Below are positions 9,019 through 34,800 of a stretch of 44,525 nucleotides of DNA, in pieces. The position numbers and the translations under genes are program-made. The notes beneath the pieces were generated by a model that did no database searches, was not told the origin of the DNA, and saw only the letters and a list, made by a program, of their open reading frames with translations. Numbering within the stretch: the first letter of the stretch is position 1; every line of letters starts with the position of its first letter. Origin of the DNA: Candidatus Hydrogenedentota bacterium. GTDB taxonomy: Bacteria; Hydrogenedentota; Hydrogenedentia; Hydrogenedentales; JAGMZX01. The stretch is from the NCBI GenBank assembly GCA_029556545.1, contig JAKQEQ010000175.1, positions 1-44,525 of the forward strand, written 5' to 3'.

Positions 9019-9356
9019 CGAAGCAACGCGAGCAGTCACGCGCCATCGAGCGGAGCAGCGGCAACACCTTCGCGGACTTGGGCGTCCGTAACCCGGAAGA
9101 AGCCCTTGCGAAAGCGGCATTGGCCCGCCAGATTGCGCGCATCATCGACGGGAAGGGGTGGACGCAGGAGAGAGCCGCCGTCGCGCTTGGAGTGGATCAG
9201 GCCAAAGTGTCTGCTCTGATGCGCGGCCGCTTGCAGGGATTCTCCACGGACCGCCTGCTTCGGTTCTTGCTCGCGCTCGGGCGGAACGTGGACATCGTAA
9301 TTCGCCATCGAGCCGTCCGCGCCCCACGGCCTCGTATCCACGTGTCCTGCCGCTGA
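9015..9356 (+). CDS. HigA-like XRE-family antitoxin
   Basis: A 113-aa protein with a Cro/C1-type helix-turn-helix at about 37-80 (ARQIARIIDGKGWTQERAAV, then LGVDQAKVSALMRGRLQGFS). It is expected to bind the toxin at 8644 and to repress their shared promoter. The family signature LLRFLLALGRNVDIVI follows at about 81-96. The N-terminal part (SSGNTFADLGVRNPEEALAKA) matches HigA-like antitoxins. Translation is coupled to the toxin by the ATGA overlap. The last 15 residues or so are basic and not conserved in the family as I know it, so the end may be a modest extension. The gene converges on the GH116-like gene. Confidence 0.9.
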   Translation: MTKQREQSRAIERSSGNTFADLGVRNPEEALAKAALARQIARIIDGKGWTQERAAVALGVDQAKVSALMRGRLQGFSTDRLLRFLLALGRNVDIVIRHRAVRAPRPRIHVSCR

Positions 9357-9429
9357 GCCGCCGCCTCGCCGTGGGTAAGGCAGGCTTCGTCCCCTTTCCT
9401 CACGGCCCCGAGAATACGCAACACGCCGT

Positions 9430-11427
9430 CTACGGCGCGACAGCGAGGGCCGCGTAGTCCTTCGGTTGTAGCGCCTGGAACAGGGTCCAGACACAGGGGT
9501 TCGAGTAGTAATGAGTGCCCCAACTGATCTCGCCGGTATCGGGTTTGAGGGACCACGGGATGTTCCATGGGATTCCCTGTCGCAGCGCGATATTCGCGTA
9601 GCTTTCCTCGAAGAGGCGCACGGCCTCTTCCTTGCGCCCGGCGAAGGCGGTCATGGCGCAGAAGTTCCAGACCTCGCCGATGGTGATCACGGCGGAGTGG
9701 GCTGCGAAGGAATCGTCTATCGAGCCGTCGGGGCGCACACCGTTCACGGCGCCGTAGGGCGTGGCGGCGACATTGCCCAGAAAGACCGTGTCAATCATGC
9801 CGCCCACGCGCCGTTCCGGCAGAATATTGCCGAGGCCGCACGCATAGGCGAACCATTGGCCGCACAGCGCGTTCGTGAGCGAGGTGTCGCTCGTCCGGTT
9901 ATTCGTCGGGTCGTTGTAGAGCCGATAATACGCGCCGTTCCAGAGCAGAGCGTCGAAGGCGCGCGCGGCGCGGGCTCGGATTCCGCGCACTTCGTCCGCG
10001 AAGGCCTTGTCGTCCGTTCGCGTGGCGGCGGCCTCGGCGGCGTGCAGCGCGGCAAGGCTGATGCCGCCGGTGTAGGCGCTGGTTCCCCACCACGGCCACA
10101 CGTCGTAGTACTGATTCGCGGGGAAGCCCGTCGCGCTGCCGGGCGCTTCATTCACCAGGCCGTCGCCGTCTGTGTCCAGGGTCAGCGCGTAGCGCAGCGC
10201 CTTCTTCATCGCTGGATAGACCGCGCGGAGATAAGCCTCGTCTTTCCAGAGAACTTGGTTGCGCCAGCATGTGAGCACGAACTCGGTAGAAACGATGGGC
10301 CGCTGCAGGTCCCACATCGGTGTGCGCGTGCCCGCCGGCGTGCCGAAACCGAAGGCAATCTGGCCGCTGTCCGCCTGCGTGCGGATAAACTCCGCCATTG
10401 TCGCCTTCTCGCACTCGGGCCAGAGCAGCGCCAGCGGAAACGAACCGTTGAAGCGGCATACAAAGGTCTCCGTAATCGGACAGCCGGTGAATGACTCACT
10501 GAGGAAGAAGCGCCCGTCGTCCATCCACCACGAATTGCGCGCCAGGACATAAAGACTGTTCAGCAAGGCATCCTGGAGCATCGGGGAAATTTCGCTCGCG
10601 TAGATGCGCTCCTGCCACCGGATCAGCGCGCGCTCGATGGCGGCCCCGCGCCGGAGCGCCGATTCGAGCGCGTCTTCGGCGTCGCGATAATGCTCCGCAT
10701 ACCGATGGCGCAGGCGCTCGCCGTCGCTCGAATTCCATTCCGGGAAATGCCACGCCAGCGCGAAGGTCACCTCCGAAGTTTGCCCCGGCGCGAGCGCGCA
10801 CTCCGCCGTCGCGGCGAGCAGCCCGTCCTTGCTCTCTTGCCGCAGTACCGTCCAGTCGGGTCCGCTGCCCCCGACGGCGTAGCCGCCGTCCGTTGCTTCG
10901 GCGTCGGCTTTCACTTCGTGGCGCTTCCATTGGAGCACAATCGCCGCGGGAACGGAGTCCTGCCCCGTATTGGTCACGATGAACTTGAAGAACACCGCGG
11001 GCAACGCGGAGACGTCGTAGTCATGCGGGACCAGCGGCGCATAGGCGCGCAGATACGCCGTAACCGGGCCGAACGCGGCGCCGAAATCGAGGTCCGCGCA
11101 GGGAAAGTGGCCCCAGAAGCGCGCGCCGGGCACGGCGGCCCGTCCCGGCAGCAGTTCGACCGTCCGCCCGCCGATACGCAGGACAAACCCGCTTTCGGGC
11201 TCCACGGGACGCGGCTTGAGCCAGTCGTTCTCGACGCTCGCGGCGCCGAACGCCCCGCTTGCGGTCAACTCGACGAATCCCGTGCCGAGCGCGCCTAGCG
11301 GCAGCGGGCTTTTCAGCGTGGCTGCAGTATGCCACACGCCGCTGACGGGGCGCGAGAACCCCGGCACGTCGAAGCTGTCAAACTGCGGCAGCGCGTGAAG
11401 CAACATCGGGGCGAGAACGAGCAGCAT
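9430..11427 (-). CDS. GH116-like glycosidase (bile-acid beta-glucosidase family), secreted
   Basis: A 665-aa protein. The N-terminus MLLVLAPMLLHALPQ looks like a short signal peptide. Residues about 30-60 carry PLGALGTGFVELTASGAFG, the N-terminal beta-sandwich start typical of GH116, and the C-terminal half is an alpha/alpha barrel with TPMWDLQRPIVSTEFVLTCW, DTDGDGLVNE, YDVWPWWGTSAYTGGISLAA and a late NIPWSLKPDTGEISWGTHYY. These match the GH116 non-lysosomal glucosylceramidase family, whose members cleave beta-glucosides or beta-xylosides; glycogen-debranching-like (6-hairpin) relatives are the alternative. ATG 11427 is chosen over the longest frame because GGGAGG precedes it and the upstream extension crosses the minisatellite and a palindrome. 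Its neighbours suggest glycoside breakdown. Activity is inferred. Confidence 0.75.
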   Translation of the reverse strand: MLLVLAPMLLHALPQFDSFDVPGFSRPVSGVWHTAATLKSPLPLGALGTGFVELTASGAFGAASVENDWLKPRPVEPESGFVLRIGGRTVELLPGRAAVPGARFWGHFPCADLDFGAAFGPVTAYLRAYAPLVPHDYDVSALPAVFFKFIVTNTGQDSVPAAIVLQWKRHEVKADAEATDGGYAVGGSGPDWTVLRQESKDGLLAATAECALAPGQTSEVTFALAWHFPEWNSSDGERLRHRYAEHYRDAEDALESALRRGAAIERALIRWQERIYASEISPMLQDALLNSLYVLARNSWWMDDGRFFLSESFTGCPITETFVCRFNGSFPLALLWPECEKATMAEFIRTQADSGQIAFGFGTPAGTRTPMWDLQRPIVSTEFVLTCWRNQVLWKDEAYLRAVYPAMKKALRYALTLDTDGDGLVNEAPGSATGFPANQYYDVWPWWGTSAYTGGISLAALHAAEAAATRTDDKAFADEVRGIRARAARAFDALLWNGAYYRLYNDPTNNRTSDTSLTNALCGQWFAYACGLGNILPERRVGGMIDTVFLGNVAATPYGAVNGVRPDGSIDDSFAAHSAVITIGEVWNFCAMTAFAGRKEEAVRLFEESYANIALRQGIPWNIPWSLKPDTGEISWGTHYYSNPCVWTLFQALQPKDYAALAVAP

Positions 11428-11455
11428 GATCGGGGCCTCCCAAGCATCGTTGTCG

Positions 11456-11489
11456 GTCGGACGTGTCAGACAAGTCAGACCTGTCGGAC
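11456..11489. repeat. Minisatellite: four units of GTCNGAC plus 2 nt (period 9)
   Basis: Units begin at 11456, 11465, 11474 and 11483: GTCGGAC, GTCAGAC, GTCAGAC, GTCGGAC. Architecture and copy number are the same as at 1696-1729. It lies 29 nt upstream of the GH116-like start codon, in the promoter/leader region of that gene. Confidence 0.75.
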
Positions 11490-11522
11490 TCGTCGCGCCA
11501 CAGCATAGCCCAAACGGCGACG

Positions 11523-11611
11523 GAATTGACACCGACAAGAGGAGCGGGGCCATCCTGCCCCCGAATGGTGGGGCGGGACGCCCCACCTCCTATACCCCCG
11601 AATTGACACCG
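11523..11611. repeat. Palindrome-bearing mini-element between 12-nt direct repeats
   Basis: GAATTGACACCG occurs at 11523-11534 and again at 11600-11611. The 65 nt between them contain a perfect hairpin, GGTGGGGCG (11567-11575), loop GGA, CGCCCCACC (11579-11587). The layout resembles a small insertion with target-site duplication in the gap between two divergent genes. The GGA loop also occurs in the palindrome at 31741-31757. Confidence 0.6.
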
Positions 11612-11652
11612 CCGCGTGAGAGTGCCATGCTCTAAGGCTCGGAGGCGCACGG

Positions 11653-12390
11653 ATGGTCGGAGGACGTTATATTCGCGTGTTGTGTCTTTCCCTGTGGCTC
11701 TCAGGCGCATGGGCGGTCGAGCACTGTTCCGGACAGGAACCGACGCAGCCGAACGGTGAAGAGCCGCGGGAAAGCGCGATCCCGCCCGACTGGGAGCCGG
11801 TCGAACTCGACTTGCCCAGCCCCCTGTTCGTGGGCACGCCGCGCGAACTGTGGACGCCGAACCTCGGGCCGCCGTCGCTCGAACCGCGTAAGCCGTTTTT
11901 CGCGCCCAAGGGCGTGGCGAACGTCGCGGAAGGGGCGCGCGTCACCGCCGGCCAGTCGCGCCCGCTCCTCGGCGACCTCGAACAGGTCACCGACGGCGAC
12001 AAGGCGGGTTCGGACGGCAGTTTCATCGAGATCGAGGCGGGGCTGCAATACATCCAGATCGATCTCGGCAACGATCACGAGATTTTCGCCGTCGTGGTCT
12101 GGCATTTCCACATGGAACCGCGCGTGTATTTCGACGTCGTGGTGCGTGTGGCCGACGACCCCGACTTCATCGCCAACGCGCGCACGCTGTTCAACAACGA
12201 CCACGACAATTCAGCGGGGTTCGGCGTCGGCAAGGACAAAGACTACATCGAGACCTATGAGGGCAAGGTCGTCGAGACCGCGGGGACGAAGGCGCGATAC
12301 CTCCGCCTGTACAGCCGCGGCAACACGTCGAACGAACTGAACCACTACATCGAAGTCGAGGTTTACGGCAAGCCCGGCAACGGAGGGTGA
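11653..12390 (+). CDS. Secreted discoidin-like (galactose-binding fold) protein
   Basis: A 245-aa protein with a signal peptide at about 1-28 (RVLCLSLWLSGAWAVEHCSG; the Cys might suggest lipidation but the context is weak). A proline-rich linker follows, then from about residue 90 a domain starting GARVTAGQSRPLLGDLEQVT and DGDKAGSDGSFIEIE, with QYIQIDLGNDHEIFAVVVWH, and ending ARYLRLYSRGNTSNELNHYIEVEVYG. This is the pattern of F5/8 type C/discoidin-like jelly-roll domains, which bind sugars or surfaces. GGAGG stands 8 nt before the ATG. ThuA follows after 4 nt, so the two are probably co-translated. No catalytic residues are recognised; function in carbohydrate binding is inference. Confidence 0.7.
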   Translation: MVGGRYIRVLCLSLWLSGAWAVEHCSGQEPTQPNGEEPRESAIPPDWEPVELDLPSPLFVGTPRELWTPNLGPPSLEPRKPFFAPKGVANVAEGARVTAGQSRPLLGDLEQVTDGDKAGSDGSFIEIEAGLQYIQIDLGNDHEIFAVVVWHFHMEPRVYFDVVVRVADDPDFIANARTLFNNDHDNSAGFGVGKDKDYIETYEGKVVETAGTKARYLRLYSRGNTSNELNHYIEVEVYGKPGNGG

Positions 12391-12394
12391 GTAC

Positions 12395-13150
12395 ATGAAA
12401 TATGGAGTAGTCCTCCTTTGTGCGCTGTTGGCGGCCGGCGTCCGCGCCGAGGACAATGAAGGAACCGGGAAGGACGGCGAACCGATCAATGTCGCGGTCG
12501 TGACGGGCGGTCACGGTTTTGACGAGCCCGCGTTCCTGGCCTTGTTCGCCAGCCTGGAAAATGTCCACCACACCCATCTGCCGCAGAAAAAGGGCAGCGA
12601 ATTCCTCGAAGATATCGCCGACTGGCCCTATGACGTCGTCGTGCTCTACAACATGTCGCGCGGCATCTCGGAGAAACGACGGGCGAATTTCGAGGCGCTG
12701 CTGGACCGCGGCGTGGGGCTGGTTGTCCTCCACCACGCCATCGCGAACTATCCCGAGTGGCCGGGCTACGCCGCGATCATCGGTGGGTCGTATTTCTTCG
12801 AGGAAACCACACGGGACAGCGTCACCTACCCGCGGTCCGAGTACACCCACGACGCCGAAATCCGCGTGAAGATTGAAGACGCGGGCCATCCGGTCACGCG
12901 GGGCGTCGAGGATTTCACGATCGTCGACGAGACCTATCGCAAGTGGGTCTACGACGCGGGCAATCACCTGTTGTTGAGCACGGATCATGCCGAAAGTAAT
13001 CGCGAACTTGCGTGGACCCGCGAAGCGGCCGGACGGCGGGTCTGCGTTATTCAGCCGGGGCACGGCCCGGAAGTGTTTTCGGACGCCGCCTATCGGCGCC
13101 TGGTCGCGCAGGCGATTCGATGGGTGGCGCGGCGGGAGTCAAAGGAGTAA
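12395..13150 (+). CDS. ThuA-like domain protein, exported
   Basis: A 251-aa ThuA-family protein (class I glutamine amidotransferase-like fold) with a signal peptide at 1-18 (MKYGVVLLCALLAAGVRA). Conserved features seen are VAVVTGGHGFDEPAF (34-48), YDVVVLYNMS, VGLVVLHHAIANYPEWPGYA (around 108-127), GGSYFFE, HPVTRGVEDF, DETYRKW and VCVIQPGHGPEVFSD. ThuA and ThuB act in trehalose and related disaccharide use through 3-keto intermediates in rhizobia; many ThuA proteins in this kind of genome are exported and sit with DUF1080 and Gfo/Idh/MocA proteins, as here. The gene starts 4 nt after the discoidin-like gene with GGAGG overlapping its stop. The catalytic role is not established for this branch. 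Confidence 0.9.
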   Translation: MKYGVVLLCALLAAGVRAEDNEGTGKDGEPINVAVVTGGHGFDEPAFLALFASLENVHHTHLPQKKGSEFLEDIADWPYDVVVLYNMSRGISEKRRANFEALLDRGVGLVVLHHAIANYPEWPGYAAIIGGSYFFEETTRDSVTYPRSEYTHDAEIRVKIEDAGHPVTRGVEDFTIVDETYRKWVYDAGNHLLLSTDHAESNRELAWTREAAGRRVCVIQPGHGPEVFSDAAYRRLVAQAIRWVARRESKE

Positions 13151-21919: not shown

Positions 21920-24520
21920 ATGCGGTTGGACAAATTGACGATTCGGACGCAGGAGGCGCTTGCGGCGGCTGTGGACCTTGCCGCGCGGCAGCAGCACCCC
22001 GAGGTCACCGCGCTCCACGTGCTGGCCGCGCTGCTCGAACAGGATCAAGGCGCGGTCGTGTCGATTCTCCAGCGGCTTGGCGTGGCGCCGGGTCAGCTTG
22101 CGGGCGAGACGCGCCAGGCGCTCGAGCGGCTGCCGCGCGTCTCGGGCGCGGCGGCGAATCCGGGGTTGAGCGGCGAGGCGCAGCAGGCGCTCGAGGCGGG
22201 CTGGCGCGTCGCGCAGTCGCTCAAGGACGAATACCTCAGCACGGAACACGTGCTGATCGGCATCATCGAACATGGCCGCGGCGACGCGGCGCAGTTGCTC
22301 AAGCGCCACGGCGTAACGAAGGACGACGTGCTCCGGGCGCTGCGCGACGTGCGCGGCACGCAGCGGGTCACGGACCCGAACGCGGAGACGACGTATGACG
22401 CCCTCGAGAAGTACAGCCGCGACCTGACGCAGCTCGCCCGCGCGGGAAAGCTCGATCCGGTCATTGGCCGCGACGACGAGGTCCGCCGCGTGATCCAGGT
22501 GCTCAGCCGCCGCACGAAGAACAATCCGGTGCTTATCGGCGAGCCGGGCGTCGGCAAGACGGCCATCGTCGAGGGCCTGGCGCAGCGGATCGTCGCGGGC
22601 GACGTGCCCGAGGGTCTCAAGCACAAGCGCATCGCGGCGCTCGACATGGCGGCGCTCATCGCGGGCGCGAAGTTCCGGGGCGAATTCGAGGAGCGGCTCA
22701 AGGCGCTGCTCAGCGCGGTGCAGCAGGCCGAGGGGCAGGTCATTCTCTTCATCGACGAGATGCACACGATCGTGGGCGCCGGCGCGGCCGAGGGCGCGAT
22801 GGACGCCTCGAACATGCTGAAGCCCGCCCTCGCGCGGGGCGAACTCCACTGCATCGGCGCGACCACGCTCAACGAGTACAAGAAGCACGTCGAGAAGGAC
22901 CCGGCGCTCGAACGGCGGTTCCAGCCGGTGCTCGTGAGCGAGCCGGACGTCGAGAGCGCCATCGCCATCCTGCGCGGACTCAAGGAACGCTACGAGGTGC
23001 ACCACGGCGTGCGCCTCAAGGACGCCGCGCTCGTGGCCGCCGCGCACCTGAGCCACCGCTACATCGCCGACCGGTTCCTGCCCGACAAGGCCATTGACCT
23101 GGTTGACGAGGCCGCCTCGCGCCTACGCATCGAGATCGACTCGATGCCTTACGAGATCGACGTGCTCGACCGCCGCCTGCGCCAACTCGAAATCGAGCAT
23201 CTCGCGCTCAAGAAGGAAAAGGACAAGGCGTCCCAGGACCGCCGCGCCGCCATCGAGCAGGAAATGGCCGAACTGCGCGAGCAGATGATCGCGAAGAAGG
23301 CCCAGTGGCAGGCGGAGAAGGACGTGATCAACAGCATCCGCGGCGTTCAGGCGCAGATCGACGAGGCGAAGCGCCGGGAGGAAATCGCCGAGCGCAACGG
23401 CCAGCTCGACAAGGTCGCGGAAATCCGCTACGGCACGCTCAACGAACTCCAGCGCAAACTCGAAACCGAGAACAAGCGGCTCGCGGAACTGCAAAAGGGC
23501 GGCAGCTACCTCTCCGAGGAGGTGACCGAAGAACACATCTCGAAGATTGTCTCGAGTTGGACCGGCATCCCCCTCGACAAACTGCTCGAGGGCGAGATGG
23601 ACCGCCTCCTCAAGTTGGAGGACCGGCTCGGCGAACGCGTCATCGGCCAGGAGGACGGCGTCCGTGCCGTGGCCGATGCGGTGCGCCGCGCCCGCGCCGG
23701 ACTCAAGGACCCGAACCGGCCCATCGGCTCGTTCATCTTCCTCGGCCCGACCGGCGTGGGCAAGACGGAACTGGCCCGCGCGCTGGCGGAGTTGCTGTTC
23801 GACAGCGAGCACGCGATGGTGCGCATCGATATGTCGGAATACATGGAAAAGCATACGGTTTCGCGGCTTATCGGCGCGCCGCCCGGCTACATCGGCTACG
23901 AGGAAGGCGGTCAACTCACCGAGGTCGTCCGGCGCAAGCCCTACTGCGTCGTGCTCCTCGACGAAATCGAGAAGGCCCACCACGACGTGTTCAACGTGCT
24001 GTTGCAAGTCCTTGACGACGGACGACTTACGGACGGACAGGGCCGCACCGTCGATTTCAAGAACACGGTCGTCATCATGACCTCGAACCTCGGCGGCGAA
24101 CTCTTCCAGCAGGAAGGCGGCGACGACCAGAAAGAAGAGGCGGTCCGCGCGATGATGCGGCAGTATTTCCGGCCCGAATTCCTGAACCGGGTCGACAAGG
24201 TGGTCGTGTTCCATCCCCTGACCCGCGAGCATATCCGCCGGATCGTGGACGTGCAGATGAAGCAAGTCGCCAAGCGCTTGCAGGACAAGGAGATAAGCAT
24301 CGCGTTGAGCGACGCGGCCCGCGACCGCCTCGCGGACGAAGGTTTCGACCCGGTTTATGGCGCGCGGCCCCTCAAGCGGGCCATTCAGCGCCTCGTGGTG
24401 GACCCCTTGGCCCTGCAACTGCTCCAGGGCGCCACAAAACCCGGAAACCATGTTATAATTGGGGTGGACGGAGGCGGTGGCGGGCTTACGTTCGAAACAG
24501 TATCGCTCCAAACGGCCTAA
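21920..24520 (+). CDS. clpB: ATP-dependent disaggregase ClpB
   Basis: An 866-aa Hsp100 chaperone that, with the DnaK system, extracts polypeptides from aggregates in the cytoplasm. In order: the N-domain double repeat (1-150), AAA+ 1 with Walker A GEPGVGKT (about 207-214) and Walker [16 protein letters not shown], the middle coiled-coil domain (about 410-525, starting [20 protein letters not shown]) that separates ClpB from ClpC and ClpA, then AAA+ 2 with [10 protein letters not shown] (about 605) and [20 protein letters not shown], and the C-terminal [13 protein letters not shown]. Length and motifs are those of a complete ClpB. There is no IGF/IGL-type ClpP loop, as expected. GGAAAGGAG precedes the ATG. 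Confidence 0.97.
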
Positions 24521-24818
24521 TGTGGTAGTTGACCTTGGACCGGTCCTAGAACCGGTCCGCAAACCCTCCCCGGGGTCGGGCGTATCCCCAGCGCCCGGCC
24601 TCGCATTGATTTTGGGGAAACGTCCGGTGAACGCCATGGTCTGCTGGCGACCGCGCGGGATCGCCGCCGGGCGCACGAACGGACTCTTCCACGGAAGCCA
24701 CCGCGGGCGACGCGCCGACGCCAACCACTACAGCCTGAGCCAAAGCGCCAAGCGCCACCCCAGGCGTCTGCCCCCGGAAAGCACCCTGTGCATCACCTGA
24801 CGCTGACCCGCCCAGGGG
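24521..24818. other. Gap between clpB and the low-GC cassette
   Basis: GC-rich sequence with no recognisable coding region on either strand; short open frames have no ribosome binding site or known domain. It contains the post-clpB hairpin and ends in the cassette promoter. Confidence 0.5.
24537..24558 (+). terminator. Hairpin after clpB
   Basis: GGACCGGT (24537-24544) pairs perfectly with ACCGGTCC (24551-24558) across a 6-nt loop, 17 nt after the clpB stop. No T-tract follows, so it may be a Rho-assisted end or processing site rather than an intrinsic terminator. Confidence 0.45.
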
Positions 24819-24847
24819 TTGACAGCCCCGCAAGGACGTGCTACAGT
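24819..24847 (+). promoter_or_regulatory. Sigma-70-type promoter ahead of the GHKL-PRTase cassette
   Basis: A perfect TTGACA (24819-24824), a 17-nt spacer and TACAGT (24842-24847). The predicted start near 24854 leaves a leader of about 200 nt before the first ATG at 25055. The base composition falls within this leader, suggesting the promoter lies at or just inside the left edge of the acquired segment. AAGGA stands 7 nt before the ATG. Confidence 0.6.
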
Positions 24848-25054
24848 CGCGTCAAGGTGGGCGCAGGCCCGCCACGGACCACCATCTTAAATTGCCCCGG
24901 TGGCTGTCGAAAGCTGGGGGAAGCTCAGTTCTGCCATGATGTCGCACCAAGCGATGTTGAATCGATCGCGGCACTCTTCGCGCTCATGATACGCCTCACG
25001 CGAAGCGCTTGAGCGTAAAGAACGTCGTTCACGTGGCATTACAAGGATGCACAT

Positions 25055-28000
25055 ATGACGACACAAAGCGACTATTCTCTGTCCCTCGTTGGCGATCTTG
25101 CGCTGGGAGACTATCCCGTAGGTCTTTCCCGGCTTCCCGATTTTCTCGAACGTGCGCGCGAATCTCACACAGCGAGTGAAATCAAGCTGGATTTCTCTTG
25201 GTTTGATCTTACGATGCTCTGCCATTTCGCGCTAGCCATCAAGGCTTGCCCTGGGGCTCCTCCCGATTCCTTAGCAGAGAGGATAATGCTGAGGTTTGCT
25301 ACGGAGCAATGTCCCAGGAAATATCGTTTTCTTTGGCGCTCTGGATTCTTCTCTTCCACACGTGTTGATCATAACAAGAGCCCATTTCATGTCTATCCAG
25401 ATATCTGGAAAGAACAGCCGGCTGATGCCATACAACGTGCGAATTTCTCTCCGCTGCTAATCAGTGAATTACCGAAGAAAGATGAAGACAAGGAGCATGA
25501 CCGCGTTTCGGGCTATTCCGAAATGTCGCTTTCCCTGGTCCAAGACCTTCTTGAACAGATCGAGAAGATGGCGGTCTTTCCGCTAGTGGCTCATACGAAC
25601 CTGATCAGCTCACGAGAGTACCTTTACGTCGTCCTTTGGGAGCTTGTGCAAAATGCCGTGGATCATTCCAATGGGAAGAATGTGGCCGTTGCGGCACAGC
25701 TCTTCTATCCAGGGGAACTGCCCGGTGATAAACCTCTCGATCTTTCCAAGCAATATCGACTCGAAGAGCGCAACAGCAAGAAGTTGGAGAAGAGGCGTAA
25801 TTGGCTCGCAAGGCATCGGAATTGTCCATATCTGTTGCTCACGTGTGTTGATGATGGAATTGGCATTCCGGCTTCCATGCGTCAGAGACCACAAGTGCCG
25901 GAAGGCGAAGATTCTGATCTGCTGGGCTTTGCGCTTGAGAGAGAGTTTTCCTCGCATGACTGCGTCGAACACTATTTCGATGTCCACGGACTCCACCTTA
26001 TAGGGAATCTCCTATCAGCATACGATGGATACCTCTTCTTTCAGAGCGGGAGAGCGCGTCTTCAACTCGATGCTTCCGGCAAGAGCAGTGAGTCACTTGA
26101 CGTGGACCACGTTTTGAAAGGTACGTCTTTTCAGATCCTCCTTCCGCTCGACGTTCTTGCAAGCAGCTACTCCGTCTTTCACACTGACGGCAGGGATACC
26201 TCGAACTCCGCTCCTCCAGTTGTTGTTGCCGAAGAAATTCGGCGGCACAGCATCGAACTGCCTCCGCCTCCCCATCTTCGGAAAGAAGTTGTCAATGCTG
26301 TTGTCAAGTCGGTTTCTGACATTGACAGGATTCTTTATCTGGACTTCGTCGGTATGCCGAGGGAAAGACATTTTGTTGGCCTCCTGCTCCACTGCATACG
26401 GCAAAGGAGGTCGCATTTCCCGACCGTCGTGTTGAATGCCCCTGAAGAACTGTTTTCGGCTATCGCCGGGCTCCAACGGTTTGAAGAGTCCAAGTCAGGC
26501 GGCGATCCAGAAATGAGGCAAGTCGACCAGGGACTGGCGCTATCTCTTTCGCGTGGCGTGGAGGAATACGCATCTCCGCTGATCCTACCCGTCGCACGAA
26601 TCGTCCCAATTGAGGTAGAGGGTGCGGCGGCAAACAAGAGACGTATCGCTGTTCAATGGCTAGGCTTGGGGCGTCGCGGACCACATGCCCCAGCATTGGC
26701 AAGGTGTCTGCTTGATTATTTATTCGACTGCGAAGGAACAGCGTCAGAGGACGTTCTCGAAAGCGAGGCTCGCAAGCACGGTGGACATGACGGTATCGCC
26801 AACTCCGTTCTAAGGTGGATAAAGCGAAGCAACCCGGGGCTTCTCAACGAGCATTCCTCCTCCAGCGGCAGCAATGAATGGAGCCTTGCTTTTAGCGCAT
26901 CGCAACTCTACTTTGATTCAGTTGCGAGCCTTGAAGACCAGATTTGTAGGGCAATTGAACGGTATGCCCACGTAAAGAAGAACGACCCTGAGGTCATCTA
27001 TCACTGTAACTGGCGCGAGCATAACGCCTATCAGTCCGAGTATTACGAGGTTTGGAATGTCGTGGCCATTCCTCAGTATGCGCGGATGACGGCGTCTCTA
27101 TTACTGACAAATTCACAAGCACACCCTGGGATTGGCGCGCATCTTGCCGAAGTGAAAGGAATTATAAGCGTAACCCCATCCGCGGGCCTCATAGCACGCG
27201 AGATCGCGCGTACGCTACGAATTCCGCATTGGGAAGCCAAGAGTGTCTATGACCTCGATGATGCCGAGTGGCCGGAAGATTTCAATCACGAGCCGGTCTT
27301 AATGGTGGATGATCTCGTTGGTACCGGAAAGACGTCCAGAATGGTCCTGGAGTGTATAAGTAAGAAGAACGCTCAATGTAGGGGTATCTTGACTTTGCTG
27401 GCTTCGACAGAAGGCTGCAGTTCTAGGGCGACTCTTGGTCAAAACATTGTACACGTGTTGGAGGTGGAACTGGGTTGCCCTTCTGAAGATAGGATTGCGG
27501 ACGCCCGACAGCGCGGCAATATCCGTGAGATTGATCCGCACACCCTTGAGCCGATACCTGCCAGCTGGCTTGAAAGAGCAACACCGCCAGAGAGGGAGGC
27601 GCGGAGGAATGAGCTGCGCGAGATAGTCGGGATGAACGGCTTTCAAAGCGGTCACTATGCCTATTCCGGACACCACTACTACACTTTTTTTGACACAATC
27701 GGGTACATGAACAACTCGGCAGCACTGCAGAAGCTTGAGTCTTGGTTCTGGGACAGTATCCGCACCTGGTACAAGGACATCGTCCTCCCCATAAACAATA
27801 ACGAGCCAGTGAAGAGAATCTCAATTATCTACCCCTACTACTCGCCAATTGCCGCGTTTCTTCACGAGATTTCCCCGCGCATTCCTGAGAGCGCTCCAAC
27901 AGAAGAGGTCAGCGTTCACGTCGCCAAACCTTATCGGCGAACTATGGGAAAGACAGGATATCATGTTGTTGCCATCGGTACTGGGATCCCCGAGGAACCG

Positions 28001-29893
28001 GCGAGATTCTGTGTTTTTATTGATGATGGGATAGCAACCGGCGGCACGATGTCCGCTATCATCGAGGAACTCGTGGGACGTTATCCCGACGACCCCTCAT
28101 CATCGAGGAACACCGTTGTTTTCCAATCAGCTATTCTCGCGCTGATCATTTTCGACCGTATCGGTATGGGACCGCGAAAGCACTTCAGGAAACTTTATTC
28201 ATATCGCGGAGGAGTTAGGTTCGATTTCAAGCCTCTTCATTCATTCAATCTTCAGGCATTCTACGCCGCGGATTGCCCTATTTGCCGCATCAAGAGGGAT
28301 ATCGAGTCTTTGTTTCGAGATCACGAACACGTAAAGAAGCATATCGGCGATAGCATTGAGTCCGTTGATATCATTGAACCTGTTTCGAAGTGGCTCTCGC
28401 CGACGTACCTGACTGGGGTATCTACTCTGGCACGAAACAAGGCACCCGATCTGCTCAACGACAGTGATACTATTGCCGCCGTCGTTAACGCCAATGACGT
28501 GCTCTTCTCCGACAGAGCCACCGGGGACCAGATCCGCAGGAGCATCAGCGACACCGCAAAAACTCCAGTAGCGCGCCTTGAGATACTCCGATCGGTCGCG
28601 ATGGACTCCTTCCTGTATCGCTCAGTCCACGATGAGCCGTTTCTTACCGCAACGATCGTGAAACTCTTGTTCAGAGGTTGCGTCTCAAGTTCCTACAGGA
28701 AATGGTTCCTCCTCCACGTCCCCTATTTCGTCTCTCACAAGTTGGCCACGAAGCTTCTGCTTGGCGATCTACCTCGAGATCTTCGAGCGGTCGACGATTC
28801 CGTTATCAACGACGGAGGCAACAGGGTGGGTATTGCCGAGTACTTCGATCATCGCGGCGATGTCTTCGATACCCTCATTTGCGCGATTTGGTTGTTGAAC
28901 AATAGTTTACCGAAACCGTTCATTACGGACCATGACAACGGCGTCAGCGCGAGCGGCCAGGTGGTTACCGGAGTTGAGCCTGCCACACATTGGGACTCGG
29001 AATGGCGGAAATGTCTTTCAGATTATCCGCTAAGCTTCCGCCTCGCCAGTGCCACTTCGGCAACGAATCTTTACGAGGTACGTAGGCGGGCCGATATGCT
29101 GCTGTGCAATTTTGCGACACATTTCTCTCGTGATCATGAAGAATCGTACCGCTATAGACTTTCCGTCCTTCTCAATGAGGACATGCCTAGGCAAGAACTG
29201 GCGGCTTTCTATGCGCGAGACATGAAATACACAGTGGACTCCATCACACGCGTCAGGCAGTATTACGGGATTAATGAGGCCATGTTCCCCGATGACGTCC
29301 TGGCTGGTTTGTTGCGACTTTACGACAAATGGATAAGAGGTGATGCTGAATCGGGTGAGCAATGGCGTTCGCTGGTAACCTCTGCTCTAGTAGCAGAATC
29401 CTTCATAGAGCAGCCTGAAACCATGATTGGAAGACTCCTTGGGGAGTTGGCGCCGGCCATCACGACGGTACTATCAGTAACCTCTCAAGCGATTCATCAA
29501 AAGAACAGGAATGCATCACGGGAGACAGGAACGGAGGAGACATTACAGATTACTGTGGGAGAAGACGCCACGGCTCTACACGTGTTTTGCACGCGCAGGT
29601 TACTTTGCGAAACACTTAGCCACCTTGTTCGAAACGCAGCTCAGCGCCCCGGACGTGTTTTGCGAGATATTAAGATGGATGTTAAGACAAAGACAAAGGA
29701 CGGCAGATTGCGCGTTGTCTTTGTTGTGACGCAGCCCGATGAATTGTCAAAGGAAGATATTGAGAACTGGCACTCTGCATATGGTGGAATCAGGTCTCAG
29801 AAGGACGCGCTGGAATTGTTCCGCGCCGATCTGAGCGTGAATCCCCCTCGCGAATTCTGCATTGAAGTGGACGCCGTCAGAATGGAGAGATAA
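25055..29893 (+). CDS. GHKL ATPase with two phosphoribosyltransferase-like domains (1612 aa)
   Basis: A large soluble protein with no signal peptide or membrane segment. Residues 1-90 are STAS-like in pattern. Residues about 160-365 form a GHKL (histidine kinase/Hsp90-type) ATPase: N box WELVQNAVDHS (195-205), G1 DDGIGIP (266-272), HGLHLIGNLL (311-320) and GTSFQILLPL (356-365). A second STAS-like stretch (about 420-475) follows. PRTase-like domain 1 spans about 640-830 with the PRPP-loop signature VLMVDDLVGTGKTS (748-761); domain 2 spans about 905-1070 with FCVFIDDGIATGGT (985-998), followed by CPIC (1074-1077). The last 100 residues have an N-box-like LCETLSHLVRNAAQ (1517-1530) but no G1 box, a degenerate GHKL end. 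No histidine-kinase dimerisation (H-box) motif was found. GC and codon use differ sharply from the neighbours. It is followed 3 nt later by a receiver-HD gene. Domains are clear by motif; the role is unknown. Confidence 0.8.
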   Translation: MTTQSDYSLSLVGDLALGDYPVGLSRLPDFLERARESHTASEIKLDFSWFDLTMLCHFALAIKACPGAPPDSLAERIMLRFATEQCPRKYRFLWRSGFFSSTRVDHNKSPFHVYPDIWKEQPADAIQRANFSPLLISELPKKDEDKEHDRVSGYSEMSLSLVQDLLEQIEKMAVFPLVAHTNLISSREYLYVVLWELVQNAVDHSNGKNVAVAAQLFYPGELPGDKPLDLSKQYRLEERNSKKLEKRRNWLARHRNCPYLLLTCVDDGIGIPASMRQRPQVPEGEDSDLLGFALEREFSSHDCVEHYFDVHGLHLIGNLLSAYDGYLFFQSGRARLQLDASGKSSESLDVDHVLKGTSFQILLPLDVLASSYSVFHTDGRDTSNSAPPVVVAEEIRRHSIELPPPPHLRKEVVNAVVKSVSDIDRILYLDFVGMPRERHFVGLLLHCIRQRRSHFPTVVLNAPEELFSAIAGLQRFEESKSGGDPEMRQVDQGLALSLSRGVEEYASPLILPVARIVPIEVEGAAANKRRIAVQWLGLGRRGPHAPALARCLLDYLFDCEGTASEDVLESEARKHGGHDGIANSVLRWIKRSNPGLLNEHSSSSGSNEWSLAFSASQLYFDSVASLEDQICRAIERYAHVKKNDPEVIYHCNWREHNAYQSEYYEVWNVVAIPQYARMTASLLLTNSQAHPGIGAHLAEVKGIISVTPSAGLIAREIARTLRIPHWEAKSVYDLDDAEWPEDFNHEPVLMVDDLVGTGKTSRMVLECISKKNAQCRGILTLLASTEGCSSRATLGQNIVHVLEVELGCPSEDRIADARQRGNIREIDPHTLEPIPASWLERATPPEREARRNELREIVGMNGFQSGHYAYSGHHYYTFFDTIGYMNNSAALQKLESWFWDSIRTWYKDIVLPINNNEPVKRISIIYPYYSPIAAFLHEISPRIPESAPTEEVSVHVAKPYRRTMGKTGYHVVAIGTGIPEEPARFCVFIDDGIATGGTMSAIIEELVGRYPDDPSSSRNTVVFQSAILALIIFDRIGMGPRKHFRKLYSYRGGVRFDFKPLHSFNLQAFYAADCPICRIKRDIESLFRDHEHVKKHIGDSIESVDIIEPVSKWLSPTYLTGVSTLARNKAPDLLNDSDTIAAVVNANDVLFSDRATGDQIRRSISDTAKTPVARLEILRSVAMDSFLYRSVHDEPFLTATIVKLLFRGCVSSSYRKWFLLHVPYFVSHKLATKLLLGDLPRDLRAVDDSVINDGGNRVGIAEYFDHRGDVFDTLICAIWLLNNSLPKPFITDHDNGVSASGQVVTGVEPATHWDSEWRKCLSDYPLSFRLASATSATNLYEVRRRADMLLCNFATHFSRDHEESYRYRLSVLLNEDMPRQELAAFYARDMKYTVDSITRVRQYYGINEAMFPDDVLAGLLRLYDKWIRGDAESGEQWRSLVTSALVAESFIEQPETMIGRLLGELAPAITTVLSVTSQAIHQKNRNASRETGTEETLQITVGEDATALHVFCTRRLLCETLSHLVRNAAQRPGRVLRDIKMDVKTKTKDGRLRVVFVVTQPDELSKEDIENWHSAYGGIRSQKDALELFRADLSVNPPREFCIEVDAVRMER

Positions 29894-29896
29894 GAC

Positions 29897-31477
29897 ATGA
29901 AGATCTTGTATTGTGACGACCTTCAAGCGCATAGAGATGGGCAAAAGAAACACCTTGAAGGCGAATGGGCGAAACTAGAGGAAGAAGGTGTGTTTCACGA
30001 GGCGCTGATTCTTAAGCCATGCGCAGACATTGTAGACGCGACGGAGGCGGCGGAATACGATGCAGTGTTGCTAGATCTTCTTTGGGGACCCGAGAAGAGG
30101 CCATATGGCATTGAATTGGCCGAGAAGGTTCGCAAGCAATATCCCGAGAAGCCGATCATGGTTTTCACGGTTTCCACAGACGCCCAGTATTACGACCGGC
30201 TTCTCGCGGTAAACATTTGTGCCTATTTGAGAAAAGCAGAGTCGTCGAGAACAACTTGCCTTCACATTATGCAAGGCATTGACCGAGCACGGAAAGCGCG
30301 CAAGGGCCAGTGTCTGTATAAACGTATTCGCGAGACTGCTAGGAGGGAAGGATGGAGCGGTGATGAAGTCGACAAGGCTGCGTCGGCCGTGTGGAAATTT
30401 GAACGACCGCATGACCGCTGGAGCGAATTCTGGAACGCTTTCGACCAGCGTCTTGAACTGATGGGCTTGGCATCGGCATTTAGGGAAATCGGTAAGTTCT
30501 TTGGCGATGCAGATTTGCTTATGCTGAGTAGCCTGCCTGGAATGCGTGGGCATTTAGAACACGTCCTTAACGTGTATTTTACAGGCTACGTAATCAGCAA
30601 CAACAATGGACGCTTTCGCGCGGCGGCTCGTCATGCTGCGAATAATCTAAAGGACATGGATTGGAAAAGCGTGGAAGACAATGACGAATACTACTGGAGC
30701 CTTTTCCAGCTTGCCTGGTTGGCTGCTGCCACCTTTCATGATGCGGCGTATCCCCTGGAGGTACTACCGGACACATACGCTCGATGTACGGAAGTGAAAG
30801 GAAGATTTGCTCATGTGCTTAAGCTTGGGACCGAGCCGCCCAACGAAATTGCGGTACAGGACGCGGCGACATTGACGGAAGAACTCGCCACGACGCTCAC
30901 GAATTTGAAGACAGGGATACCCCATACTTTTCTCCAACAAGGGCTCGTGTTCAACGGCTCCCGGGTTAATCATGGCGTTGCGGGAGGACTTCTCTTCGCG
31001 AGCGTAATCAAAAGCGTAGTAGCGCTTCCGGGTTCACCGCCCGAATTGAAGGCGTATCTGCAATGGGCTGGATCAGCGATGGCCCTTCACGCATTGAAGG
31101 TTCCAGGCAGCAAGCAAGGCGTCAAGATGTCGCTTGAAAAGGACCCTCTATCATATTTGCTGTTGGCATGTGATGAGATTCAAGTATGGGATAGGGAAAG
31201 ACCTGATGCGAGTATGACGAGGTCACCATTCAAAAGCACGGAGCTCACAGGACTCGATGTCGAGAACGATAAGGTCGAGGCGCGTGTCACGTGTCATCTC
31301 TATGAGAACGTCAATACACAAGACCAATCATTCAAAGAAGCTAAGGACAGGATAAGCAAGTCCATTTCGGATGACAAGGTGATTCTTAATGCGTATGTTG
31401 ACGGGTGCGGCCTCAAGATCGTTGTTAAGCGGGTGATATCTGCGCCTGCCTATGAGTTTGACGTGCTTACTTTCTGA
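29897..31477 (+). CDS. Response regulator receiver fused to an HD-type phosphohydrolase-like domain
   Basis: A 526-aa protein. Residues 1-125 are a complete receiver: acidic pair Asp7-Asp8, phospho-acceptor Asp60 (YDAVLLDL), Thr91 and Lys113. Residues about 175-435 are helical with HD-superfamily spacing of metal ligands: His219/His222 (GHLEH), His281-Asp282 (TFHDAAYPLE), His359 (RVNHG), His398 (ALHAL) and Asp426 (LLACDEIQVWDR). This suggests a metal-dependent nucleotide phosphohydrolase or phosphodiesterase, but it lacks the HGYxxP motif of HD-GYP c-di-GMP enzymes. The last 75 residues are unassigned. The ATG at 29897 is 3 nt after the upstream stop with GGAGA before it, so the two are translationally coupled. 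Phosphorylation may switch the HD domain; the upstream GHKL domain is the obvious candidate partner. Confidence 0.8.
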   Translation: MKILYCDDLQAHRDGQKKHLEGEWAKLEEEGVFHEALILKPCADIVDATEAAEYDAVLLDLLWGPEKRPYGIELAEKVRKQYPEKPIMVFTVSTDAQYYDRLLAVNICAYLRKAESSRTTCLHIMQGIDRARKARKGQCLYKRIRETARREGWSGDEVDKAASAVWKFERPHDRWSEFWNAFDQRLELMGLASAFREIGKFFGDADLLMLSSLPGMRGHLEHVLNVYFTGYVISNNNGRFRAAARHAANNLKDMDWKSVEDNDEYYWSLFQLAWLAAATFHDAAYPLEVLPDTYARCTEVKGRFAHVLKLGTEPPNEIAVQDAATLTEELATTLTNLKTGIPHTFLQQGLVFNGSRVNHGVAGGLLFASVIKSVVALPGSPPELKAYLQWAGSAMALHALKVPGSKQGVKMSLEKDPLSYLLLACDEIQVWDRERPDASMTRSPFKSTELTGLDVENDKVEARVTCHLYENVNTQDQSFKEAKDRISKSISDDKVILNAYVDGCGLKIVVKRVISAPAYEFDVLTF

Positions 31478-31497
31478 AATCAGTGGACACTCGTGGG

Positions 31498-31512
31498 GAA
31501 AACGGGGTTTTC
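31498..31512 (+). terminator. Weak hairpin after the receiver-HD gene
   Basis: GAAAAC, loop GGG, GTTTTC, starting 21 nt after the stop codon. The second arm supplies a short T run. It is a weak stem and is offered only because nothing stronger is visible here. Confidence 0.3.
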
Positions 31513-31740
31513 ACATGCGACGTTCAAAGAAGTCTTGCATATCGTGTCCAGGGGACGCTGTCTGGCTGCATATCTCGTGCGCGTCCTGTGAAGTACAGGG
31601 TGCTTTTCTGTAAGCGTCCGGTGAGGGCCAACTTCCGTATTCGGCGGGTTCGTGGGACAATGCCGTCGTTACATCAACTGGAGATGACGGACGGCGGCGG
31701 GCAGGTTTGCGGGTGCGGGCAGTCTGCGCCCCACACTATC

Positions 31741-31757
31741 GGGGGCAGGATGCCCCC
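31741..31757. repeat. Palindrome GGGGGCA-GGA-TGCCCCC
   Basis: Perfect 7-nt arms with loop GGA. The same arms with a one-base loop occur at 39631-39645, and the same loop occurs in the palindrome at 11567-11587. Confidence 0.65.
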
Positions 31758-31881
31758 GCTCCTGTATGGCCGCTCGACGGGAGGGGGAGGACCAACTTTT
31801 TGTGTCGCGGTCCCGGCCTTGACGTCCAGAGCCGCAAGCGCGCAGTACGTGTGCTTGCGGCCCTGTATGCCAAATACCGAA

Positions 31882-34800
31882 TTACCGCCTCTTGCGGAGC
31901 ACGAACGCGCCCGAGATCGCAGTCACGCCGGCGAGGATGCTCAGTCCCAGCAGGCCGGTGACCGGGATGGGCGGATCGACCGTGAGATACACCACCGGCG
32001 AGTAGTGTGTCTCGAGGTCGTCGGACACGGCGAGATAGTACGCGCCCGCGTGAGCAAACTCGAGCGGGGTGAACGCGAGCACGGGCGTCGTGCTGCCGGT
32101 CAGGGTGTCGTTATCGCTGAGCGCCTGGACCGTCTTCAATCCGTCGTCGAAGTACCATTGCATTTCGACCGTGCCGAGCCCGCCCTCGACAATCGTCCGC
32201 AGTTCCTTATATCTGGCGGCGTTCCAGGTGAGGCGGTAGTTCCCCAAGCCGTCGGGTTCGAGTTCTTCCGTATCCATCGTGATCGAGATGTGCTCTCCGA
32301 TGCGCATGTTGCTGACATCGGATACCACCTCCTCGAAGTAGTCGGTGATGCGGCTGTAATGCTCGAAGACGCCTACGCCCAGGGCCGCCGGATCGACCGA
32401 AAGCTCCTGCGAGTTCTCCGTCGGCGTGAACGAGATCAGAACGGTCTCGCTGGTCGATCCGCCGGGCCGCCTGATCCACTCGAAGGTAAGGGGACTGAAG
32501 CCGCCCGTAAAGCGCGTGCGCAGCAGGAAGGGAGGCGAATCCGTGTAGCCAAGCGCATCCGCCGGGCTTTCCTCGATTGCGAGCGGGTCGCCCACGAAGA
32601 GCCGCGCCGTATTCGACGTCGCGCTCTCGGGGCCGCTCATGTCGGATCCGGAGTCCTGGACGACGAGCCGGAAGTCGTGGCGGTCGTCCGCCTCCGATAC
32701 CGGATCGATAGTCACCGTGTCGGTGTCCGCTCCCGAGATACTGCCCTCGTTCACCAGGGGCATGAACCCGGATCCGGCGTCCCGTTCCCACGTCAGGGTG
32801 AGCGGCGGGATGCCGCCCGACACCGTGGCCGGAATACTGACGGCGCCGCCTGGGCTGACGCGGTAAGTCACCGTATCGATGGCAACGGTTGGCCGTTCGA
32901 AGACCTCGACGACAGTCACGTTGGAGATTTCATTTTCGCTAGCGCCATCGGTGATGCTGCACGAATAGCCGCCCGTGTCGCTCAGGTAGGCGCCCGTGAT
33001 TATCAGCGTGTCCGTATCGGCCCCGGAAACGTTGTCGCCATTGACCAACGGCGCGCCGTCGCGCAGCCAGGCGTATGTGTAGTTGCCGTCGCCGCCCAAA
33101 GCCGAGACTTCCAGTACCAGGTCTTCGCCTTCATATATTTGTATCGGGCCGACGGGGATGGGGCCGAACACGGTCAACAACAGCTTGAACTCCGCCGCGT
33201 TGGTCGCCTCCGTATGCGTGTTGTCCGTAATCAGACAGCGATACAGATTACCATCTATGGCTTCATCGGCCACCAGCGTCAACGTCGAGAAGAGTTCCCC
33301 CGGCATGTTGACGAAGCCGCCGCCGTCGTTTACCTGCCACTGGTAGTCCAGACCGCCCGCGCCATCGGCGTTCCGCACCTCGAAAACGACCGGCTGCCCA
33401 TATTGGGCGGCCACGTCCTGCACGGGGTCATACGTGATCGGGCTGTGAATGTTCGCGAAGGAGTCCGACCCGACCGAGGCGACGGTCGTCGTGAAGACCC
33501 GGCCTGCCGGCAACGTGCCACCATTGACGGGTCGGGGTCCGTTCGACCCGACTTCGAGAATGACTTCAGGCAGGTCGAACAGGCTGTTGTTCTTGATGAA
33601 TATCTGGTCATAGCCCGCGAAGGGCGAATTGGCGCCGGAGAGGCGCACCATCTCGATGCGGAACAGCCCCGGTGGACTTACGAGCCCCTGGTTCCAGAAC
33701 GACGTGTTCAGAATGCCTTCAGTGGCGGCGCCGCTTGCTAATTGTCCGATGTAGGGATGGTTCTCCAAAGCATCGTACGAGTTGCCGCCTGTCAGTATAT
33801 CGTCATTGCGCACGTTGCCGAACACGGGCGTCGCGTTGGGATCGGCGACGCGGTTTACCGCCGGGCGTTGACTCGATGGATTGCGCAGATTGCTGATCAG
33901 CGTTACCCTGCCGTTATGATACGATTGCGTCGAGGCCACGTTGTTCGCCAAGACTTCGCCGGCGCTGGCCAGAATCACCGAGCCCTGCAACTTGACCATG
34001 CCCGGCGTAGCTTTGCCGCCCACGCCGCCGGCCCCGCCGCGGCCGCCGGTTCCGCCGCGGCTGCCGGCGCCGCCCCGCCCGCCGGTCCCACCGGCGTTGC
34101 CGTTCCCGCTACGCGCGCTCAAATGTATATACCCCCAACCGAACGAACCGCCGGACCGGCCGGCCATACCCTCAGTGTAGTCCGCCGCGGCGCCACCGAT
34201 TATCCCTGTCGCCCCCGCTTTCGGCAAGCCCGCCGAAATATTGACCGCCCCGCCAAACTGAAGAAGGCCGCGCGCGCCGAGCACGATGGCGCCGCCGCCG
34301 TGCGCGCCCACGCCGCCGGCCCCTCCTCGCCCGCCGGACCCTCCGTACCCGCCTGCGCCGCCCTGTCCGCCTGCGCCGCCATTGCCTTGACTCTCACCGC
34401 CCGGCGAAGGCGTATTGGCAACGGCAGTCGATGTACCGTTATTGGCGATGGGGCCTTGATCTCCTACGGCCCCCGGTTGACCCAATCCCGCGCCGCCGCC
34501 GCCGCCGCCGCCGCTGCCCCCTGACCCGGCGCCACCCGCGCCGCCACCGCCGCCGGCAAACCAAGTCACCGGCGATGATGATACGAACAAGCCGCCGCCT
34601 CCGCCGCCGCCGGCGGCCCCGCCCCCACCGCCCCCACCTGCGCCCCCACCGCCGCCGCCGCCGCCGCCCGCGCCGCCGCCGCCGCCCCCCCCGGGACCCG
34701 CGTATAAGTCAAGGGTGTTAGCCGGCGCGGTGAATTGCGCCGCGTTGCCGTCCCCGCCCGGATTGCCGATGATTCCGTTATCCCCCCCACTTTGTTCGCC

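What the first reader, a model, noticed from the sequence alone, without database searches (positions are those of the whole stretch)
25055..31477. Low-GC two-gene cassette: GHKL/dual-PRTase protein plus receiver-HD protein, a candidate undescribed conflict or signalling system
Seen: a 1612-aa protein with GHKL ATPase boxes and two separate PRPP-loop motifs, followed 3 nt later by a receiver fused to an HD-like domain with full metal-ligand spacing. Established: GHKL, PRTase and HD domains occur in nucleotide-centred conflict systems, and comparative-genomics work has named conflict-system PRTase and HD families (PRTase-CE, HD-CE); I cannot test membership here. Inference: the large protein senses a trigger through ATP binding, the PRTase domains make or modify a nucleotide or base, and the phospho-regulated HD protein removes it or acts on it. 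Having both PRTases and the GHKL domain on one chain with a receiver-HD partner is unlike systems I know.
Basis: partly seen in the sequence, partly recalled or inferred. Interest (0 to 1): 0.92.

Follow-up and report, generated by a model that had tools for sequence, protein, structure and literature searches.

The report
Rare mobile nucleotide-signalling gene pair
A foreign, very rare pair of bacterial genes (an ATP-binding protein with two nucleotide-building domains, plus a phosphorylation-controlled nucleotide-hydrolase-like partner) also turns up as an accessory unit in a bacteriophage, so it is probably an uncharacterised weapon or shield in the contest between bacteria and mobile DNA.

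Summary
ORF A (25055-29893, 1612 aa) carries a GHKL ATPase domain, two type I PRTase modules and a degenerate second GHKL domain. ORF B (29897-31477, 526 aa) is a receiver fused to an HD domain with all five metal-ligand motifs. The pair is foreign: GC3 is 0.55 against 0.77-0.92 in neighbours. No relative appeared in about 530 genomes or among plasmid and phage records. One full relative was found, same order and translationally coupled, in an 81.8-kb tailed-phage contig (A 27-31%, B 34-37% identity). There it is an accessory unit read opposite to its neighbours. Key motifs of GHKL1, both PRTases, receiver and HD are conserved in both copies. The upstream border is a dispersed repeat, IS3-linked in one genome; other copies in the order border known or candidate defence genes (PDC-M02/Hma, NsnB-like, Mrr). 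The best reading is a nucleotide-centred conflict system: A senses and processes PRPP or nucleotides, B is a receiver-gated HD phosphohydrolase. Activity, trigger and phosphodonor are untested. Membership in HD-CE or Detocs is not met; PRTase-CE is borderline. It is a new architecture assembled from known conflict domains.

The parts
25055..29893 (+). Gene A, 1612 aa: N-terminal domain - GHKL1 - linker - PRTase1 - PRTase2 - helical region - degenerate GHKL2
   Evidence: ORF; homologue P0004 in phage contig, 27-31% identity over nearly full length, blastp 6.5e-114
25595..26164 (+). GHKL1 ATP-binding domain (aa 181-370), N box N200, D266xG268xG270, DVHGL, GT
   Evidence: HATPase_c 2.6e-4, phrog_3364 6.9e-9; most conserved domain between the two copies, 45%
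27122..27454 (+). PRTase module 1 core (about aa 690-800): TPSAGL pyrophosphate loop and PRPP loop VDDLVGTGKT at 27302-27334
   Evidence: PF00156 above cut-off; NCBIfam; motif kept in P0004; Foldseek of the model to APRT/OPRT/XPRT structures
27635..28324 (+). PRTase module 2 (about aa 861-1090): YPYYSP, PRPP loop FIDDGIATGGTM at 28016-28051, CPxC at 28274-28285
   Evidence: PF00156 second stretch, PRTase_2; DDGIA[TS]GGTMSA and CPxC invariant in both copies
29345..29890 (+). Degenerate second GHKL domain (about aa 1431-1612)
   Evidence: phage homologue matches HATPase_c 1.2e-5 at aa 1481-1580; aligned window region keeps N1527 but lacks a DxG box
29897..31477 (+). Gene B, 526 aa: receiver - HD - C-terminal domain
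   Evidence: ORF; homologue P0003 34-37% identity, blastp 3.7e-96
29897..30286 (+). Receiver domain of B, phosphoacceptor D60 (30074-30076), D7/D8, T91, K113
   Evidence: PF00072 5.1e-5, below cut-off; same residues in P0003
30509..31216 (+). HD domain of B with H219/H222, HD281-282, H359, H398, D426
   Evidence: blastp to L009 HD protein 7e-7; five ligand motifs in the same order and similar spacing in three proteins
24797..24931 (+). Left border: copy of a dispersed repeat with promoter-like TTGACA-17-TACAGT (24819-24847) and an abrupt conserved end at ...AAGCTCA
   Evidence: matches in 8 of 68 genomes of the order; alignment of copies; promoter-like scan, not above chance overall
31581..31722 (+). 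Right border: terminator-like hairpin (31581-31603) and a 113-bp sequence (31610-31722) that also borders the C33 cargo in the same genome

Best explanation
The pair is a mobile, nucleotide-centred conflict system of two proteins. A is an ATP-dependent sensor and processor: its GHKL1 domain binds ATP and switches conformation, and its two PRTase domains bind PRPP and a nucleobase or nucleotide, as enzymes or as sensors. B is the effector: a metal-dependent HD phosphohydrolase held in check by its own receiver domain, released by phosphorylation or by contact with A when a trigger such as infection by another mobile element disturbs nucleotide or PRPP pools. B would then hydrolyse nucleotides or a nucleotide signal and stop growth of the intruder. 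Shown here: domains, conserved catalytic residues, genetic coupling, mobility, phage carriage. Inferred: binding, enzyme activity, trigger, order of events and conflict role.
For: Domains and motifs. An independent homologous pair with the same gene order in a phage genome with terminase large subunit (1.1e-82), portal (8.6e-33) and DNA polymerase, read opposite to the genes on both sides. Catalytic positions of GHKL1, both PRTases, receiver and HD are conserved across copies only about 30-37% identical. Foreign composition and absence from 67 other genomes of the phylum and hundreds of others. The border repeat elsewhere abuts PDC-M02A/B and HmaA/B, NsnB-like plus PDC-S39, and Mrr type IV restriction genes. 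A related HD protein lies on an element with serine recombinases and a relaxase. PRTases are effectors in type III retrons (PMC12548924); a two-component logic with a nucleotide-destroying effector exists in Detocs (PMC11249213).
Against: No phenotype or activity data. No conserved phosphoacceptor histidine in A, so A is not a canonical kinase for B; the phosphodonor is unknown. Only two members are known. PADLOC gives only sub-domain PRTase hits and no system call for A or B. In its own genome the pair sits between clpB and secreted-protein genes, not in a multi-system defence island. No background rate was measured for defence genes next to the border repeat.
Confidence: 0.45

Rival explanations
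1. Phage offence or superinfection exclusion: the pair is primarily a phage accessory unit that remodels host nucleotide pools or blocks competing phages or host nucleotide-signal immunity; the bacterial copy is a remnant of such an element.
For: The only other complete member is in a phage, opposite in strand to its neighbours with slightly lower GC (0.57 vs 0.61).
Against: No phage genes lie next to the window copy; its flanks are repeat relics and ordinary genes. With two members the direction of transfer cannot be told.
Confidence: 0.25
2. Regulatory, non-conflict system: a two-component-like switch controlling nucleotide salvage or stress metabolism, with catalytically active PRTases and an HD phosphodiesterase.
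For: Receiver, GHKL, PRTase and HD domains are all common in ordinary signalling and salvage (own knowledge).
Against: Absent from every other genome of the order searched, foreign composition, present in a phage.
Confidence: 0.18
3. The PRTase domains are non-catalytic PRPP/nucleotide sensors and only the HD domain is an enzyme (a variant compatible with the best explanation or either rival above).
For: PRTase2 lacks a classical glycine-containing pyrophosphate loop (YPYYSP instead) and PRTase1 of the phage copy has L where the last PRPP-loop T is expected; sensor PRTases such as PurR are known (own knowledge).
Against: The acidic pair and TG or SG of both PRPP loops are kept in both copies.
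Confidence: 0.4
4. Chance juxtaposition of two unrelated horizontally acquired genes.
For: Only the proximity itself, if the second locus were ignored.
Against: Same gene order with overlapping or 3-nt spacing in two highly diverged loci.
Confidence: 0.02

Closest known systems
Detocs (defensive two-component system)
   Same: Two-component parts with a receiver-bearing protein and a nucleotide-destroying effector; anti-phage (PMC11249213; receiver fused to effector is from own knowledge)
   Different: Detocs has three genes, and its best-described effector is a PNP; here two genes, no conserved DHp histidine, tandem PRTases on the GHKL protein and an HD output domain
PRTase-CE (Pfam PF24390) and type III-A retron PRTases (PADLOC PRTase_III-A)
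   Same: Type I PRTase in a predicted or proven conflict setting; PF24390 at 25.3 bits, PADLOC 3.6e-5
   Different: PF24390 cut-off is 27 and the phage copy scores 12.3; no reverse transcriptase gene or Rfam RNA match in the cassette
HD protein L009:895-2940 (unnamed, with a weak RyR match)
   Same: Same HD ligand motifs in order and similar spacing, blastp 7e-7; lies on a recombinase/relaxase element
   Different: No receiver, no GHKL-PRTase partner; different C-terminus
Ter-system PRTases (PRTase_2, PF15609)
   Same: PRTase thought to make a nucleoside signal in a conflict system (PMC7824862); weak PF15609 match of PRTase2
   Different: No TerB/C/D/F, TelA or HAD enzymes in the pair; below the Pfam cut-off
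phrog_3364 (phage GHKL-region protein, unknown function)
   Same: GHKL1 region of A matches at 6.9e-9 and of the phage copy at 6.1e-8
   Different: 304-position family without PRTases

Membership tests
PRTase-CE (PF24390) | Score above the Pfam gathering cut-off (27 bits) | tested here: not met
   25.3 bits for A, 12.3 for the phage homologue: borderline for one member, clearly below for the other
HD-CE | Match to the Pfam HD-CE model | tested here: not met
   No HD model of any kind in Pfam hits B at E up to 10, nor the phage copy at E up to 1
HD superfamily | H...HD...H...H...D metal ligands | tested here: met
   Motifs conserved in three diverged proteins
HD superfamily | HD fold | tested here: inconclusive
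   AlphaFold model of B has mean pLDDT 38, too poor for a fold search
Type I phosphoribosyltransferases | PRPP loop with acidic pair and TG, in a PRTase fold | tested here: met
   PF00156 above cut-off with two stretches; model core matches PRTase structures, Foldseek 2.4e-5, prob 1.0, TM about 0.5 to one module; overall pLDDT 50.5
Histidine kinases (two-component sensor) | DHp helix with conserved phosphoacceptor His before a HATPase domain | tested here: not met
   The candidate His before GHKL2 in the phage copy (LLAHLAPRL) is Glu in the window protein (LLGELAPAI); no conserved His helix precedes GHKL1
Response regulators | Acidic pair, phosphoacceptor Asp, Thr/Ser, Lys | tested here: met
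   D7/D8, D60, T91 (S in the phage copy), K113; PF00072 slightly below cut-off (23.8 and 27.8 vs 30.2)
Detocs | Three-gene defence system | tested here: not met
   Two genes only in both loci; no Detocs match in PADLOC
Type III retron | Reverse transcriptase and msr-msd RNA with a PRTase effector | tested here: not met
   No further gene in the cassette; no Rfam match in 24500-32000
Anti-phage defence system | Protection against phage in plating assays | not testable with these tools
   needs bench work

The most novel reading that the evidence does not exclude
Probability: 0.2. Interest if true: 0.85.

Novelty: new variant of a known kind. Interest (0 to 1): 0.56.

Why it matters
If the pair works as proposed it would join ATP-binding, PRPP chemistry and phosphorelay control in one compact unit, which no family library searched here describes. 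Its presence in both a bacterium and a phage makes it a handle on how nucleotide-centred conflict moves between hosts and viruses. The border repeat may also help to find hidden defence cargo in this poorly studied bacterial order.

Tried and rejected
Single-sequence locus searches of A and B found nothing because the patterns chosen were unsuited. A synthetic degenerate GHKL+PRTase+HD alignment hit only unrelated loci. A degenerate HD alignment worked and found L069. The last genome-collection scan chose poor patterns and found nothing, so rarity in that collection is not proven. L081 was a chance motif hit. AlphaFold of B with two sequences was unusable (pLDDT 38) and was not used for fold searches. 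I first took the shared flanks for the ends of a cargo-swapping transposon, then for an IS3 right terminus; the complementary left terminus was not found beside the IS3 genes, so this is left open. Retron, Ter and histidine-kinase readings were rejected on missing parts. The papers searched held no mention of PRTase-CE, and HD-CE hits were unrelated.

Full report
Observation. Composition is foreign: GC 0.51-0.52 and GC3 0.55-0.56, against GC3 0.77-0.92 for clpB, HEAT-repeat, GFO/IDH, Ig-domain, subtilase and PEPCK neighbours. The genome is one of 68 held for a phylum with a single order; I take it, without proof, to be Hydrogenedentota-like.

Domains of A. Pfam Pribosyltran is above its cut-off with two stretches, PRTase-CE is 1.7 bits under its cut-off, and HATPase_c matches at 2.6e-4 over 189-365. 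NCBIfam adenine and hypoxanthine PRTase models reach 2.5e-7. PHROG 3364 covers the GHKL region at 6.9e-9. The PRPP loops are VLMVDDLVGTGKT and VFIDDGIATGGT. An AlphaFold model of aa 622-1102 is weak overall (pLDDT 50.5), but both PRTase cores reach about 70-80, and the model matches OPRT, XPRT and APRT structures (Foldseek 2.4e-5, probability 1.0, TM about 0.5 to a single module).

Domains of B. Only a receiver is seen by Pfam (5.1e-5, below its cut-off). The rest aligns with an HD-motif protein from another contig (L009, blastp 7e-7). R[GD]H-x2-H, HD[AI][AG]YP, [ND]H, LH and CDE[IL]Q recur in the same order in B (219/222, 281, 359, 398, 426), in its phage homologue (233/236, 293, 380, 417, 445) and in L009 (143/146, 202, 306, 341, 376).

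A second copy. Patterns built from the HD motifs found one more locus in the viral collection. L069, part of an 81,782-bp contig, carries A' (1602 aa) and B' (547 aa) in the same order, B' starting inside the end of A'. Blastp E-values are 6.5e-114 for A and 3.7e-96 for B. Identity is highest in GHKL1 (45%), then PRTase2 (38%), PRTase1 (32%), and lowest in the degenerate GHKL2 (23%). The C-terminal HATPase of A' is recognised by Pfam at 1.2e-5, just under its cut-off, which reveals the second, degenerate GHKL domain in A. The contig encodes terminase large subunit (1.1e-82), portal protein (8.6e-33) and DNA polymerase, so it is a tailed phage. The cassette is on the plus strand between minus-strand genes, with slightly lower GC (0.57 vs 0.61): an accessory (moron-like) unit.

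Distribution. No relative of A in the 67 other phylum genomes, in 386 genomes spread over the domain or, with profiles, in further sets; about 530 distinct genomes in all, hits being single PRTases only. B had only receiver hits in the phylum. The search tool does see a 36% relative when it is present. Plasmids and phages: no relatives. The 85,000-species collection was scanned only with poor patterns, so absence there is not shown.

Surroundings. The left border (24797-24931) is one copy of a dispersed repeat: promoter-like TTGACA-17-TACAGT, then a conserved stretch ending abruptly at CTGTCGAAAGATGGGGGGAAGCTCA. It occurs in 8 of 68 genomes, with 5-6 copies in some. In G015 both copies follow a sequence ending in the 3' part of an IS3-type orfB, with an orfA ORF in L052 (rve 2.5e-22). 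In G000 a second locus, C33, has the same left border (88%) and the same right border (85%) around a different low-GC three-gene cargo. Elsewhere the repeat is followed by PDC-M02A/B plus HmaA/B (L055), an NsnB-like ATPase plus PDC-S39 (L058), a type IV Mrr restriction gene (L065) and weaker matches in L056 and L061; other copies are followed by ordinary genes. I did not measure a background rate, so the link to defence is suggestive.

Mechanism. GHKL1 has a full ATP-binding motif set, both PRTases keep the acidic pair, the receiver has all its switch residues and the HD domain all its ligands, all conserved at 30-37% overall identity, so I expect each to function. A lacks a conserved phosphoacceptor histidine, so who phosphorylates B is open. 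The most likely scheme is that A senses and processes PRPP or nucleotides under ATP control and B is a receiver-gated HD phosphohydrolase. Defence, phage offence and plain regulation are separable only at the bench; I put conflict (defence or phage offence) at about 0.7 together.

Comparison. Detocs is the nearest in logic (PMC11249213) but has three genes and its best-described effector is a PNP. Type III retrons use PRTase effectors (PMC12548924). The Ter system uses PRTases for signal synthesis (PMC7824862). A 2026 machine-learning screen lists PRTase in validated and HATPase/REC in predicted defence systems (PMC13092281); its figures were not available, so I cannot say whether this combination is among them. 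No family library searched describes the GHKL-PRTase-PRTase plus receiver-HD combination.

Verdict. It is a new variant of a known kind (nucleotide-centred conflict systems), interesting because it is rare, intact, coupled and shared with a phage, but functionally untested.

Noticed in passing
window 24797-24931; L021 9339-9467; L051-L068 (G004, G005, G006, G011, G015, G032, G058): A dispersed repeat with an abrupt conserved end (CATCTTAAATTGCCCCGG..CCTGTCGAAAGATGGGGGGAAGCTCA), next to IS3-type transposase genes in G015, directly precedes variable cargo, several times known or candidate defence genes. RNAalifold energy of the core was lower than all 200 column shuffles; Rfam finds nothing.
   Followed up: partly
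L021 (G000 C33) 9339-12779: Second low-GC island in the same genome with the same left and right borders as the window cassette but different genes, one with DUF3825.
   Followed up: partly
window 31610-31722 and L022 3318-3369: Sequences starting GTAAGCGTCC[TG]GTGA next to a palindrome; they resemble IS66-type ends from memory, not tested.
   Followed up: no
L009 895-2940 (-): 681-aa HD protein with a sub-threshold RyR match, on an element with serine recombinases and a MobA-like relaxase; no relative in plasmid records.
   Followed up: partly
window 31727-31767: Short GC-rich palindromic repeat (GGGGCAGGATGCCCCCGCTCC) found at many places in G000.
   Followed up: no
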